A stretch of 64,000 nucleotides of DNA, taken from positions 62,001 through 126,000 of the forward strand of contig NZ_QMIE01000004.1 in assembly GCF_007625075.1 (NCBI RefSeq), written 5' to 3'. Position numbers and translations under genes: made by a program. Shown here piece after piece: positions 3,777 through 43,417 of this stretch (position 1 is the first letter of the stretch; each line of letters starts with the position of its first letter). Under the pieces are notes generated by a model. It had not been told where the DNA came from. It worked only from the letters and a program-made list of their open reading frames with translations, and did not search any database. Source of the stretch: Oceanidesulfovibrio indonesiensis. Lineage in GTDB: Bacteria; Desulfobacterota; Desulfovibrionia; Desulfovibrionales; Desulfovibrionaceae.

Positions 3777-4391
3777 ATGCATATCACCAAGGATTCAATC
3801 CCCACACTGACCAAGGACGAGGTCAACTCCCTGCCGTTGCGCCGTTACGAAGGCCCCGTGGAGGTCGTTCGCACCAGAACCCAACTGGAAGCATCCCTTG
3901 CCGAGCTCGAGTCCGAAGGTCTTCTCGGATTCGATACGGAAAAGCGGCCTTGCTTCACCAAGGGGCATTTCGAGCCCACCTCGCTGCTTCAGCTCGCAAC
4001 AGCCGAGAAAGTTTATATTTTCCAGCTCCTCAAACTCAAACTGCCGACCGAGCTTACACGCATTCTGGCCGATCCCCAAATTACCAAGACCGGAATCGCC
4101 GTGCGTGACGATCTGCGCGACCTAAAAAATCGTCGAAATTTTGACGAGGCCGGTTTCGTGGATCTGGCGGATGTAGCCCGTCGGCACGAAATGGAAACTC
4201 TCGGTCTGCGCAACCTCGTGGCCACGTTCCTGGGCTTCCGTCTCTCCAAGAAAGAACGCTGCTCCAACTGGGCGCGGGGGACGCTCACCCCGCAGCAGAT
4301 CACCTACGCCGCCACGGACGCCTGGGCCAGCCGAGAGCTCTATCTGGCCATGGAACGCGCCGGCCTAGAGCCGATCGACAGCGCCTCCTGA
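3777..4391 (+). CDS. 3'-5' exonuclease domain protein (RNase D-like)
   Basis: A 204-residue DEDD-superfamily exonuclease. Exo I is seen as LLGFDTEKRP (Asp and Glu ligands), Exo II around KTGIAVRDDLRDLK, and Exo III as ITYAATDAWASRELY, giving the DEDDy pattern shared with RNase D and Werner-type exonuclease domains. There is no HRDC domain, so it is a stand-alone exonuclease domain of unknown substrate (RNA or DNA 3' ends). The ATG at 3777 is chosen because homology starts shortly after it; upstream in-frame starts run into the divergent VanZ gene. The next gene begins 26 bp downstream and may be co-transcribed. Confidence 0.85.
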   Translation: MHITKDSIPTLTKDEVNSLPLRRYEGPVEVVRTRTQLEASLAELESEGLLGFDTEKRPCFTKGHFEPTSLLQLATAEKVYIFQLLKLKLPTELTRILADPQITKTGIAVRDDLRDLKNRRNFDEAGFVDLADVARRHEMETLGLRNLVATFLGFRLSKKERCSNWARGTLTPQQITYAATDAWASRELYLAMERAGLEPIDSAS

Positions 4392-4417
4392 CTACTTCTT
4401 CTCACTCCAGCGCCGCC

Positions 4418-5107
4418 ATGATCCGCTCGCTTATCCGCCTTGCCGCCCTGCTCCTTGCCACCGCATGCGTCACCCATGCGCTCCACGGCGCGGCAGAGGC
4501 GCAGCGTTTTCGCGTGCTGATCTCCACGGAAAACCGGCAACTGCGCTCCATGATTCTCGACGTCACTGGATACGCGACCTCGTCGGACGGACCGGAAGAT
4601 AAGCTGCGGCGCGAAGCCCTGGACGACGCCCGGCGCCGAGCCCTGGCGCTCGCCCGCGAGGATTTGCAGGCGAAGCTGGAGGCCCGCAACCTGAAACTGC
4701 ATCTGGCGTTTCTCGGCGAACCCGAGGTCGGTCCGCTGGCCGAAATTCGTGGAAACCAGCACAAGCCCAGCCCGGAGGACATAGCCCGCACCGCCGTGTT
4801 CATCCACAACGCCGAGAAACTCGCCCTGACCGGAACAGGCGACCGATCCGCCGGCGTCTATTCACTCTCGGTCCGCGCCGAAGTGGTGTACGTGCTGCAA
4901 CCCACCGATGAACCGCAGAACACCCTGCGCAAGCCGCCGCCACTGCCCATGACGCCTCCGGGACAGTCGCCGTCCAGGCTCGATGGCGATGCAGGCAGAC
5001 AAATGCGCGAGGAGGCGGAGGAATCCATGGCCCGGCAGCTTCTGGAGGCATTGACCAAAGGCGGCAACAACATCGGCGTCGACGGGCAGCCGTCGCCGCT
5101 GGATTAA
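4418..5107 (+). CDS. Exported protein of unknown function
   Basis: A 229-residue protein that I do not recognise. The first 28 residues form a signal peptide: basic RSLIR, a hydrophobic LAALLLATACVTHAL core, and an AEA-Q cleavage-like site. A Cys inside the core does not sit in a clear lipobox. The mature part is mixed alpha/beta and charged (DDARRRALALAREDLQAKLEARNLKLH), then becomes Pro-rich (PPPLPMTPPGQSPS) and ends in an acidic helix (REEAEESMARQLLEAL). This suggests a small periplasmic domain with a flexible tail. It follows the exonuclease by 26 bp on the same strand, but nothing links the two functionally. Confidence 0.7.
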   Translation: MIRSLIRLAALLLATACVTHALHGAAEAQRFRVLISTENRQLRSMILDVTGYATSSDGPEDKLRREALDDARRRALALAREDLQAKLEARNLKLHLAFLGEPEVGPLAEIRGNQHKPSPEDIARTAVFIHNAEKLALTGTGDRSAGVYSLSVRAEVVYVLQPTDEPQNTLRKPPPLPMTPPGQSPSRLDGDAGRQMREEAEESMARQLLEALTKGGNNIGVDGQPSPLD

Positions 5108-40278: not shown

Positions 40279-41106
40279 ATGAACACCAACGCGACGTTTT
40301 CCATCTCGGTTCTCTCCGGCAAAGGGGGAGTGGGCAAGACCAACGTGGCCCTGAACCTTGCCTACTGCCTGTACAAGGGTCGGCACGACCTCCTGCTTAT
40401 GGACTGCGACATCGGCCTGGCCAACCTGGACGTGCTCCTGGGCATAACTCCGGAACGGAACATCCAGGACCTGCTGGATACCGACGTTTCACCCGAGCAG
40501 GTCACCGTGCCGCTGGCCGAAGGGAAAGGATTCGACTTCCTGCCGGCTGCATCCGGCGTGCCCGAGCTCCTGGAGTTGGACGAAGAGATGCAGGCCACCC
40601 TCTTCGAACGGCTCACACCGCTTTTCAGCCGCTACCATTTCCTGTTCATGGACCTGGGCGCCGGAATCACCCCCACAGTGCTTTCCTTTGCCAGCATGGC
40701 CAAGCTGCGCCTGGTCGTGGTCACGCCGGAGCCCACATCGCTCACAGACTCCTACGCCATGATAAAGGTCCTGGCCACGCAGCACAACGTCAAGGACTTC
40801 CATGTGGTGGTGAATCAGGTGGAGTCCAAACGCGACGAGCAGGAAACCTTCGGCAGACTGAATGCGGCGTGTGAGCGGTTCCTCGGCTTTCAAGTCCAAC
40901 TGCTCGGCAGCATCAGCTACGACAAGACCATCTCGGAAGCGGTGCGCCGACAGGTTCCTCTCATGAAACATGCGCCGAACAGCCCCGCCGCCAAGGATAT
41001 CTTCCAGCTTGCGCTACGGCTTGCCAAGATTCGCGAGGAGCGCCGCGCAATCCTGGAAAAGGAGCCGATCCTCAATCTGCCCTCTGGTTGGGATTTCGGA
41101 GTCTGA
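40279..41106 (+). CDS. MinD/ParA-family ATPase (FlhG-like)
   Basis: A 275-residue deviant Walker A ATPase: SGKGGVGKTN near residue 13, MDCDIGLANLDVLLG as Walker A', and DLGAGITPTVLSF as Walker B region. It has a short C-terminal extension (RLAKIREERRAILEKEP) that could form an amphipathic helix. This group includes FlhG/FleN and MinD, which set flagellar number, division site or cargo position. The gene is 18 bp after the GGEEF cyclase; no flhF or minC is next to it, so I do not choose between FlhG and MinD. Confidence 0.85.
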   Translation: MNTNATFSISVLSGKGGVGKTNVALNLAYCLYKGRHDLLLMDCDIGLANLDVLLGITPERNIQDLLDTDVSPEQVTVPLAEGKGFDFLPAASGVPELLELDEEMQATLFERLTPLFSRYHFLFMDLGAGITPTVLSFASMAKLRLVVVTPEPTSLTDSYAMIKVLATQHNVKDFHVVVNQVESKRDEQETFGRLNAACERFLGFQVQLLGSISYDKTISEAVRRQVPLMKHAPNSPAAKDIFQLALRLAKIREERRAILEKEPILNLPSGWDFGV

Positions 41107-41254: not shown

Positions 41255-41530
41255 ATGAACAAGAGCGAGCTTATCAAGAAGCTGTCCGAAGAGACGCATA
41301 TCCCACTGGACGAAGCGGCTTTGGTGGTGAACACCTTCGTCGGTTCGGTCAAGGAATCCCTCTTCAGCGGGGATCGGGTGGAAATCCGCGGATTCGGATC
41401 GTTCAAGATCAAAGAATATGGCGGCTACACGGGCCGCAATCCCAAAACCGGCGAGATCGTGGACGTGCACGCAAAACACCTGCCCTTCTTCCGCGCTGGT
41501 AAAGAACTCAAGGAATATCTCAACCAATGA
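41255..41530 (+). CDS. HU/IHF family DNA-binding protein
   Basis: A 91-residue nucleoid protein: MNKSELIKKLSEETHIPLDEAALVVN helical base, then beta arms with VEIRGFGSFKIKEYGGYTGRNPKTGE, the HU/IHF signature including the RNPKTG tip, and a C-terminal helix (FRAGKELKEYL). It bends DNA and compacts the chromosome. The ATG at 41255 (CCGGAG upstream) gives the normal family length. Its stop overlaps the start of the next gene by four bases (ATGA). Confidence 0.94.
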   Translation: MNKSELIKKLSEETHIPLDEAALVVNTFVGSVKESLFSGDRVEIRGFGSFKIKEYGGYTGRNPKTGEIVDVHAKHLPFFRAGKELKEYLNQ

Positions 41531-42423
41531 CTTTTTCGCGTTGCGCAACCGGTCTTGTCGTCGCCCTGCTCCTGTGCGTATTGAGCGCGTGCTCCTTTCA
41601 GGCATCCCCCGCTTACGCCAGAGAGCCTGTCCTCGTCCTGCTGTTCAGTTCGGACTCCAAGGGACATTTCGATCCCTGCCCCTCCTGAGGGGGCCAACTG
41701 GTAGGAGGGCTGGCCCGGCGGGCCGCCAGCATCAAGAGCATCGAGACAGTCGTGCCTCCCGAAAGGATTCTTCTCCTCGCCGGACAGCATGAGTTTCTCG
41801 ACCCCCGCGACCGTTCCGGCGGTCCGAAAACCCGACACGCCTCGGCGTTTGTGGATGCATATGCACGCATGGGATATGACGGCGTGTACCCTTCGGTCGT
41901 GGAGGCTGACTGGCTACAGGAGTATTCCGGAGACCTGCCGGATTTCTTCCGGCCTGCAGGGCATGCCGGTTTCGTGGACACATTCACCGTGGGCGAACGC
42001 ACCATCGCTGTGGTCGTGTATCCGGAGCCGGCGCGCGGCCCCTTCCCCACGGACGAACAAACTGCTTGGGTCGAACAGACTATCGCCGCGCTCGCCGGCG
42101 AAGCAGACCTCGTGGTGGGCGTGTGCAACTGGAGCAAATCCGGAGAAGAGGCGTACCTGGAGCAGGCAAAGAACCTGCCGGACATCCTCCTGGGCGGGGG
42201 GCCAGGTCCCAGCCACCCGGAAATGCTCGCCCACAATGGCAGGACTCTCTGGGCGCGTTCTTTCACCAAGGGCCGCACGGTGAACAAGATCACGCTGTAC
42301 GAATGGCCGGAAGCGAAAGCAGGCCGTACCTGGCACCTGGGACAGAACGTTCTGGCTGAGACCATTGTTCTGGACGATTCGATCCGTGGCGACGCCGAAA
42401 TAGACGCGCTGTTCCAGCCCTGA
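41527..42423 (+). CDS. UshA-like lipoprotein, probable selenoprotein (in-frame TGA at codon 54)
   Basis: Read through one TGA (41686-41688), the frame gives 298 residues. The first 53 codons encode a lipoprotein-type signal (LVVALLLCVLSACS, lipobox LSAC) and VLLFSSDSKGHFDPCPS. Directly after TGA, in the same frame, comes GGQLVGGLARRAASIKS, the 'GGLARR' block conserved in UshA/5'-nucleotidase-like metallophosphoesterase relatives, then RILLLAGQHEFL and an intact domain to 42423. The stop would become Sec in CPSU, a CxxU redox motif. Usual metal ligands (DxHG, GD) look altered, so phosphatase activity is doubtful. Start is coupled to HU. The alternative is a nonsense-mutated pseudogene, less likely since no other lesion exists. 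Confidence 0.72.
41686..41716 (+). promoter_or_regulatory. Candidate bacterial SECIS hairpin after the in-frame TGA
   Basis: Immediately 3' of TGA (41686-41688), GGGCCA (41691-41696) pairs perfectly with TGGCCC (41711-41716). The 14-base loop can close further through CT/AG to expose GGTAGG, giving the exposed GGU typical of bacterial SECIS elements. The stem is closer to the UGA than in E. coli fdhF. A competing GC-rich hairpin (41709-41714 with 41725-41730) is also possible. Confidence 0.5.
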
Positions 42424-42586
42424 TGGTCTTTTGATACGCTGTTCATATTGATGGACGCCGTACAACGTATTGGACATATCGACAGATTGCTGATTTTCTG
42501 AGTCCACGCGCAGGATGAGGAATACGAAACGTTTTGGGTCCGACGCGTTCTTCTCAGATAATCAACAATCATATAGAGGCATTATT

Positions 42587-43417
42587 GTGAGTGTTCATTT
42601 CTACAAGATGCAAGGGTGCGGCAACGACTTCGTGCTCATCGACAACCGTGAGTTAGGCGTCCCAGTGGAAGTCATGGCCGAATGGGCCTGCGCCATATCC
42701 CCTCGCGCGTTCCGCGTGGGCGCGGACGGCGTCATCTTTCTGGAGAACCCGCCCGAAGGCTCGGAAGTCGACTACATCTGGCATTTCTATAATGCGGACG
42801 GCTCCCGCGCCGAGATGTGCGGCAACGCCTCCCGTTGCGCCGCGCGTCTGGCCGCGCGCATCGGCCTGGCCCCGGCGCGCCACGTGCTGGGCACGGACGC
42901 CGGTCCGGTGCAAGCCGAGGTGGACGAACTGTCCGGCCGCGCAAAGGTGCAGCTCACCCCGCCCAAAAACCTCCAGCTCGGCATGAAAATCACTGTGGCC
43001 GGTACTGAATTCGAGGTCCATCACGTGGACACGGGCGTCCCGCATACGGTACTTTTCTACGAGGATGCGTCCTCCGTGGACGTAGCGGGACTTGGTCGCG
43101 CTATACGGTTCCACGAAGCTTTCGCTCCAGCAGGAACCAACGTCAACTTCGTCCAGGTTGTCTCGCCGGAGCGAATGGAGCTGCGCACCTACGAGCGCGG
43201 CGTGGAAGCTGAAACGCTGGCATGCGGCACCGGCGCCGCCGCTTCGGTCGTTGTGGCCAACGCCCTGGGCCGTTCGAGCGCCCGGGTGGAGCTGCGCACC
43301 ACCGGTAAGGAGCTGCTGACCATATCACTGGAGGACGGCGACGTCTTTCTGGAAGGCTCTGCGAGCTTCGTATATCATGGGGAATTCGAGCCGGTTGATC
43401 TGGGCTTGACCCTGTAA
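42587..43417 (+). CDS. dapF: Diaminopimelate epimerase
   Basis: Converts LL- to meso-diaminopimelate for lysine and peptidoglycan. The 276-residue chain has the two catalytic cysteines in MCGNASRCAARL and TLACGTGAAASV, plus MQGCGNDFVLID at the N-terminus and NADGSRAEMCGN. I start at GTG 42587 (AGAGG eight bases upstream), giving the family length; an in-frame ATG at 42515 would add 24 residues without homology. The 163 bp before it show no gene. Confidence 0.95.
   Translation: MSVHFYKMQGCGNDFVLIDNRELGVPVEVMAEWACAISPRAFRVGADGVIFLENPPEGSEVDYIWHFYNADGSRAEMCGNASRCAARLAARIGLAPARHVLGTDAGPVQAEVDELSGRAKVQLTPPKNLQLGMKITVAGTEFEVHHVDTGVPHTVLFYEDASSVDVAGLGRAIRFHEAFAPAGTNVNFVQVVSPERMELRTYERGVEAETLACGTGAAASVVVANALGRSSARVELRTTGKELLTISLEDGDVFLEGSASFVYHGEFEPVDLGLTL

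What the first reader, a model, noticed from the sequence alone, without database searches (positions are those of the whole stretch)
41527..42423. Probable new selenoprotein: UshA-like lipoprotein with CPSU motif
One TGA interrupts an otherwise open 298-codon frame. Both sides are coding in the same frame: signal peptide and SSDSKGHFDPCPS before, GGQLVGGLARRAAS after. The TGA falls where it makes CxxU, the commonest redox selenocysteine motif, and a hairpin exposing GGU follows at once. No second lesion is seen. Selenoproteins are known in sulfate-reducing deltaproteobacteria. Metal ligands of the phosphatase family look lost, suggesting a redox rather than phosphatase role.
Basis: partly seen in the sequence, partly recalled or inferred. 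Interest (0 to 1): 0.85.

Follow-up and report, generated by a model that had tools for sequence, protein, structure and literature searches.

The report
Selenium-containing dead-nucleotidase periplasmic protein

Summary
Observation confirmed: window 41527-42423 is one 298-codon frame with a single in-frame TGA at codon 54 (41686-41688), giving CPSU-GG. The selenoprotein reading is strongly supported. In 136 family members from 112 genomes this codon is TGA in 104 and Cys in 32, nothing else. The genome has tRNA-Sec, SelA and SelB; SelD was not found in the draft, though a same-genus genome has it. The family is not new: NCBIfam NF049981 'UshA-like (seleno)protein family 2' matches at 257 bits, cut-off 140, and a 2026 review lists it. 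The fold is the metallophosphatase domain of UshA/SoxB (Z 23.8) with nearly all metal-ligand positions lost, so it is probably a periplasmic CxxU redox protein. Function, partner and selenium content are unproven; 'lipoprotein' is doubtful. Verdict: new member of a known, unstudied family.

The parts
41527..42423 (+). UshA-like selenoprotein family 2 gene (298 codons, internal TGA read as selenocysteine)
   Evidence: (NF049981, 256.6 bits, cut-off 140)
41527..41619 (+). Signal peptide (AYA-R cleavage site likely; LSAC lipobox-like alternative at 41581-41592)
   Evidence: read by eye from the translation; lipobox-like motif in 4 of 136 members, A-x-A in 119 of 136
41677..41688 (+). CPSU motif; Sec codon TGA = 41686-41688
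   Evidence: site is TGA 104, TGC 31, TGT 1 of 136
41711..41725 (+). Candidate bSECIS hairpin TGGCCC-GGC-GGGCCG, 3-nt loop GGC at 41717-41719, 28 nt after the TGA
   Evidence: model constraints from PMC13188914
41255..41530 (+). HU DNA-binding protein gene, overlapping the selenoprotein start by ATGA; conserved upstream neighbour
   Evidence: PF00216 98.2 bits; HU cluster upstream in 62 loci
40279..41106 (+). MinD/ParA-type ATPase gene, conserved second upstream neighbour
   Evidence: PF01656/PF10609; cluster in 61 loci
42515..43417 (+). Diaminopimelate epimerase (dapF); the true start may be further in, near 42587. Context only
   Evidence: PF01678 139.8 bits; a dapF-like cluster next to the gene in 15 loci

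Best explanation
The gene encodes a secreted (periplasmic) selenoprotein of NCBIfam NF049981. The TGA at codon 54 is decoded as Sec by tRNA-Sec, SelA and SelB, directed by the GGC-loop hairpin 28 nt downstream (inferred from comparison, not shown by experiment). The protein keeps the N-terminal metallophosphatase fold of UshA/SoxB, has no C-terminal nucleotide-binding domain and has lost the metal-ligand positions. So it is most likely a dead phosphatase re-used as a thiol/selenol oxidoreductase whose only conserved redox pair is CPxU (CPxC in relatives that switched). Electrons probably come from a periplasmic DsbD/CcdA-thioredoxin path; the substrate is unknown (both inferred, weak).
For: Sec/Cys exchange at one codon only: TGA 104, Cys 32, other 0 of 136, with at least 6 changes on the tree, 2 of them forced by starred branches. 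tRNA-Sec 81.6 bits, anticodon TCA, SelB 375.4 bits, SelA 613.5 bits in the same genome. SelB over its cut-off in 91 of 98 genomes with a Sec copy against 4 of 14 with only Cys copies (Fisher p 2.6e-7, genomes not independent). Synonymous codon choice at L-A-R-R-A: Arg codons CGG/AGG in 101 of 104 and 98 of 104 Sec members at the two sites against 34% elsewhere in the same genes; in Cys members 16 of 31 and 13 of 31, not different from background. Stem of 4 or more pairs in 95 of 104 Sec against 7 of 32 Cys members; pair 27/39, both third codon positions, occurs as G-C, G-U, U-G, U-A, C-G. NF049981 matched by 68 of 68 scanned members. AlphaFold mean pLDDT 95.2; Foldseek E 3.5e-15 to a 5'-nucleotidase; VIA Z 23.8 to SoxB and 23.6 to a 5'-nucleotidase, tied. 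Ligand positions replaced. Purifying selection after the TGA.
Against: No experiment shows selenium. SelD was not found in this 330-contig draft. 7 of 98 Sec-copy genomes lack SelB over cut-off (G014, G022, G076, G108, G144, G173, G188; drafts) and 4 of 14 Cys-only genomes have it; 8 of the 14 Cys-only genomes are one genus group (g19), so the p value overstates. The generic bSECIS model is met by 19 of 32 Cys members too, so it is not specific here; 48-nt MFE does not separate the groups; the hairpin is not significant by single-sequence folding. The Ala codon before the Arg pair is GCC in 23 of 24 Cys members as well as 93 of 97 Sec members, so that site does not separate them. The tree gives only 2 supported independent Sec/Cys contrasts, too few for a sign test. 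The own-genome paralogue, whose front half is one of the 104 Sec entries, has an apparent frameshift. The redox role rests on CxxU and ligand loss; one member (G002) reads EAGU and lacks the Cys.
Confidence: 0.7

Rival explanations
1. Pseudogene: the TGA is a nonsense mutation and only a truncated signal-peptide product is made.
For: A paralogue in the same genome does carry an apparent frameshift. One stop codon is what a young pseudogene would show.
Against: The codon is TGA in 104 of 136 members and Cys in the other 32; dN/dS 0.28 after the TGA; Sec machinery present.
Confidence: 0.02
2. Selenoprotein, but with a structural, sensing or ligand-binding role rather than a catalytic redox one (for example a Sec/Cys site that binds a metal or sulfur species on the dead phosphatase scaffold).
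For: No telling partner is conserved: the main locus lies among HU, a ParA-type ATPase, prfB and dapA/dapF-like genes; extra Cys copies in three genomes lie beside prepilin-like genes; other positions (S169, W171, G172, E176 of the model) are nearly invariant too. Cys is lost but the TGA kept in one member.
Against: CxxU with recurrent CxxC replacement is the classical thiol-redox pattern (recalled); the own-genome paralogue lies in a DsbD_TM/thioredoxin/rhodanese/MauE cluster.
Confidence: 0.25
3. The protein is still a metallophosphatase/nucleotidase and the Sec is an accessory.
For: Same fold as UshA, CD73 and SoxB. One of 68 members matches NCBIfam SoxB TIGR04486 at 9e-6 and one of 68 Pfam PGA_cap at 0.022.
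Against: The positions of DxH, GD, GNH, H and GHxH (ligand roles recalled) read otherwise in the family; P0001 has no Pfam match, and no Pfam family is matched by more than one of 68 members at E <= 0.1.
Confidence: 0.03

Closest known systems
NCBIfam NF049981 UshA_like_Sel_2 (UshA-like (seleno)protein family 2; WP_420705249.1 in PMC13188914)
   Same: Full-length match 1-262/262 at 256.6 bits against cut-off 140; CxxU as listed
   Different: Nothing found that separates it; this is a member. The passages of the review that I saw give only a table row, without the ligand loss, hairpin or Sec/Cys history reported here
NCBIfam NF041198 UshA_like_PCGU (UshA-like selenoprotein, CxU; also in the GOS survey PMC2398784, passages seen)
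   Same: N-terminal ~100 residues alignable (51.9 bits); 67 of 68 members match at E <= 0.001
   Different: 519-position model, CxU rather than CxxU; far below its cut-off of 275
UshA / CD73 5'-nucleotidases and SoxB thiosulfohydrolase
   Same: Metallophosphatase fold spanning the 267 modelled residues, about 246 aligned (Z 23-24)
   Different: No C-terminal domain, metal-ligand positions lost, added CPxU

Membership tests
NF049981 UshA-like (seleno)protein family 2 | Score over the curated cut-off, full length | tested here: met
   256.6 bits, cut-off 140, profile 1-262/262; 68 of 68 aligned members match at E <= 0.001
NF049981 UshA-like (seleno)protein family 2 | CxxU motif as listed in PMC13188914 | tested here: met
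   CPSU at residues 51-54
Bacterial selenoprotein | In-frame TGA aligned with Sec or Cys in homologues | tested here: met
   TGA 104, TGC 31, TGT 1 of 136
Bacterial selenoprotein | bSECIS: loop 3-9 nt, stem 4-16 bp, G in first two loop positions, 16-37 nt spacing, MFE <= -7.5 | tested here: met
   Window: 6-pair stem, GGC loop, 28 nt, -8.8 kcal/mol for the hairpin alone (model). Met by 91 of 104 Sec members, but also 19 of 32 Cys members and 27 of 408 control windows
Bacterial selenoprotein | tRNA-Sec, SelA, SelB in the genome | tested here: met
Bacterial selenoprotein | SelD in the genome | tested here: inconclusive
   TIGR00476 and NF002098 give only weak hits in G000, the best to an ORF that looks like HypE; 9 of 9 other genomes searched have a strong hit with one TGA, below that model's cut-off, incl. 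same-genus G001; G000 is a 330-contig draft
Bacterial selenoprotein | Selenium actually incorporated | not testable with these tools
   needs mass spectrometry or 75Se
UshA-type metallophosphatase | Fold | tested here: met
UshA-type metallophosphatase | Di-metal ligands DxH, GD, GNH, H, GHxH (ligand roles recalled) | tested here: not met
   sequence alignments to 5'-nucleotidases 2z1a/5h7w, SoxB 2wdc and a nucleotidase-like ORF of G003; the window keeps only the first Asp. No residue-level structural superposition was seen
UshA-type metallophosphatase | C-terminal nucleotide-binding domain | tested here: not met
   298 residues; only the N-terminal parts of ~500-residue chains are aligned
NF041198 UshA_like_PCGU | Score over cut-off 275 | tested here: not met
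   51.9 bits
Lipoprotein | Lipobox | tested here: inconclusive
   LSAC present, but a lipobox-like motif in 4 of 136 members only

The most novel reading that the evidence does not exclude
A periplasmic selenol-thiol oxidoreductase class built on a metal-free, dead 5'-nucleotidase/SoxB fold rather than a thioredoxin fold, widespread in the bacterial family of the window, fed by CcdA-thioredoxin and acting on a periplasmic sulfur species or oxidant.
Probability: 0.35. Interest if true: 0.6.

Novelty: new member of a known kind. Interest (0 to 1): 0.38.

Why it matters
Such genes are easily mis-called as truncated or as pseudogenes (inference). The protein has a relative in 132 of 199 sampled genomes of the window's family, the window's own included; the sources I saw give it no function. 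It is a selenoprotein outside the thioredoxin fold. Its Sec and Cys copies, side by side in Solidesulfovibrio-type genomes, make a natural test of what selenium buys an exported protein. The codon-level hairpin signature, and its possible relics in some Cys copies, could help to read the direction of Sec-to-Cys switches.

Tried and rejected
Pseudogene: rejected by TGA/Cys at the site in all 136 members and selection after it. Active nucleotidase: rejected by ligand loss; Pfam gives no match for the window protein and only scattered single-member weak matches among 68. TAG at the Sec site (hinted by 'stops_inside 1 TAG'): L017, L019 and L025 read Cys there and L030 reads TGA; in L019 and L030 the TAG was seen to be the terminal stop. 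SelD: weak hit L057 looks like HypE beside a HypD-like ORF (by eye). P0001 against genome contigs found no relative. No relative in viral contigs (the patterns demanded Cys or LARRA, so this is weak). Phylum search: 23 of 297 genomes matched; the 19 outside the window's family are below the family cut-off, 18 of the 19 with a TGA; not studied, not counted in the census. Not counted either: the 36 loci (patterns biased to Cys; the weaker ones are Chloroflexi and other phyla, unexamined) and the 20 of the 132 matching genomes that are not among the 112 of the census. Dropped from the 138 stretches: L055 (26 bits, nucleotidase-like) and the motif-less half of the broken paralogue. Stretches identical over residues 20-120 of the match were counted once. 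One search used 135 of the 136 (one Cys member reads KR, not RR). My first motif regex found nothing because it was badly written.

Full report
Observation. The frame 41527-42423 (+) holds 298 residues with one internal stop, TGA at codon 54 (41686-41688), in the context DPCPSU-GGQLVGGLARRA. The start overlaps the stop of an HU gene (PF00216).

What family. Pfam has no match. NCBIfam release 20.0 gives NF049981 'UshA-like (seleno)protein family 2' at 256.6 bits (cut-off 140), full length, and a partial, sub-cut-off match to NF041198 'UshA-like (seleno)protein' (51.9 bits, cut-off 275). In PMC13188914 (passages seen) a table lists NF049981, CxxU, WP_420705249.1, 'GenBank annotated'; it is the only paper of the searched library that holds the accession. 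UshA-like with CxU goes back at least to PMC2398784 (passages seen); PMC9312934 lists it too (passage seen). So the claim of a new selenoprotein family is not right, but the prediction of a selenoprotein is.

Machinery. The window's genome (330 contigs, completeness 99.74) has tRNA-Sec (81.6 bits, ARAGORN SeC, anticodon TCA), SelB (375.4 bits) and SelA (613.5 bits). SelD: TIGR00476 and NF002098 give only weak hits, the best to an ORF that looks like HypE. The nine other genomes put to the NF002098 search each have a strong hit with one in-frame TGA, incl. the one-contig same-genus genome G001, though none passes that model's cut-off. A gap in the draft is the simplest reading, not shown.

Relatives. 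A relative is found in 132 of 199 sampled genomes of the same family, the window's own included. In the fetched loci 138 distinct stretches were found; 136 carry the motif region, from 112 genomes. One of the 136 is the front half of the broken own-genome paralogue. The codon at the Sec site is TGA 104, TGC 31, TGT 1. The tree of 135 rows needs at least 6 Sec/Cys changes, 2 forced by starred branches (quick tree without mixture model). Solidesulfovibrio-type genomes carry a Cys and a Sec copy side by side. SelB passes its cut-off in 91 of 98 genomes with a Sec copy and in 4 of 14 with only Cys copies (p 2.6e-7); genomes are not independent (8 of the 14 are genus group g19), and the 7 Sec genomes without SelB are drafts of 67-100% completeness.

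Hairpin. In Sec members the codons of L-A-R-R-A form GGCCC-GG[C/A]-GGGCC with the loop 28 nt after the TGA: 4 or more stem pairs (G-U allowed) in 95 of 104 Sec and 7 of 32 Cys members. The amino acids are mostly the same in both groups; the synonymous codons are not. Arg codons CGG/AGG: 101 of 104 and 98 of 104 at the two sites in Sec members against 34% elsewhere in the same genes; 16 of 31 and 13 of 31 in Cys members (not significant). The preceding Ala codon is GCC in 93 of 97 Sec members, but also in 23 of 24 Cys members. The pair at positions 27/39, both third codon positions, occurs as G-C, G-U, U-G, U-A and C-G. Some Cys copies (for example L022, L027, L028, L029, L034 of tandem pairs) keep the stem, which I read as relics of a Sec past (inference). 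In the window the hairpin is 41711-41725, -8.8 kcal/mol, and meets the four constraints of the published model. Against: that generic model is met by 91 of 104 Sec but also 19 of 32 Cys members (27 of 408 control windows); overall folding energy does not differ between Sec and Cys members; single-sequence folding is not significant and the 50-nt minimum-energy fold pairs otherwise; the tree gives only two supported independent contrasts. Nine Sec members have fewer than 4 pairs: six (L026, L031, L036, L072, L073, L101) have 0-1, of which L031 and L072 fit a shifted GCCU-GGCU-AGGC hairpin, and three (L102, L105, L108) have 3.

Structure and chemistry. AlphaFold with 68 relatives gives mean pLDDT 95.2 (Sec modelled as Cys). 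The best PDB matches are 5'-nucleotidases (Foldseek E 3.5e-15) and, tied on Z, SoxB (23.8) and 5'-nucleotidases (23.6) over 246 residues. Only the N-terminal metallophosphatase domain is present. Aligned by sequence with solved nucleotidases and SoxB and with a nucleotidase-like ORF of G003, the DxH, GD, GNH, H and GHxH positions (ligand roles recalled) are replaced: mostly N-T-x, AGxxEF, a non-NH stretch, SPWG, GSGxG. The window keeps only the first Asp. Invariant in 68 sequences: the Sec/Cys site, the GG and RR of GGLARR, and two Gly. CPxU is the only conserved thiol/selenol pair.

Context. The window has prfB - GGDEF - ParA-type ATPase - HU - this gene - dapF. In one search (136 stretches in loci of differing length) the HU cluster is upstream in 62 loci, the ATPase in 61, prfB in 43; a dapA-like gene (named by eye) is adjacent in 45 and a dapF-like one in 15. 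These are housekeeping genes and give no function. The paralogue in the same genome (PCPTU, apparent frameshift) lies between DsbD_TM and thioredoxin on one side and rhodanese and MauE on the other, with an ArsP_1 permease beyond, which hints at periplasmic thiol or sulfur redox. Extra Cys copies in three genomes (L068, L069, L070) lie beside prepilin-like genes (named by eye), which does not.

Judgement. Selenoprotein: about 0.97 (inference from several lines, no experiment). Periplasmic: about 0.95; lipoprotein: about 0.3. Dead phosphatase: about 0.95. Catalytic CxxU redox role: about 0.7. CcdA-thioredoxin as reductant: about 0.35. The finding is a correct call of a catalogued but, in what I saw, unstudied family.

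Noticed in passing
L059, about 4095-4900 (-) (own genome, C2 about 107100-107880): Second family member with PCPTU and an apparent frameshift, inside a cluster ArsP_1 permease - thioredoxin - DsbD_TM - this gene - rhodanese - MauE.
   Followed up: partly
L017-L022, L024, L025, L027-L029, L034, L060, L063 (genus group g25; Solidesulfovibrio): Tandem pair of the gene: a Cys copy followed by a Sec copy, some Cys copies keeping the hairpin.
   Followed up: partly
L068, L069, L070: Additional Cys copies beside prepilin/pseudopilin-like genes (named by eye).
   Followed up: no
L051 (G002): A member reading EAGU: the resolving Cys is lost but the TGA is kept.
   Followed up: no
G000 (window's genome): SelD not found although SelA, SelB and tRNA-Sec are present; the SelD hits in nine relatives carry a TGA themselves.
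   Followed up: partly
L005:955-1003 (own genome, C3 near 43022-43070): Guanidine-II (mini-ykkC) riboswitch match, 33.1 bits against gathering score 32.
   Followed up: no
window:38341-39411: prfB (release factor 2, which reads UGA, recalled) lies in the same gene cluster as this UGA-decoding gene, with a prfB cluster upstream in 43 loci; probably coincidence.
   Followed up: no
L170-L188: More distant relatives in other families of the phylum, below the NF049981 cut-off, 18 of 19 with an in-frame TGA; not examined.
   Followed up: no
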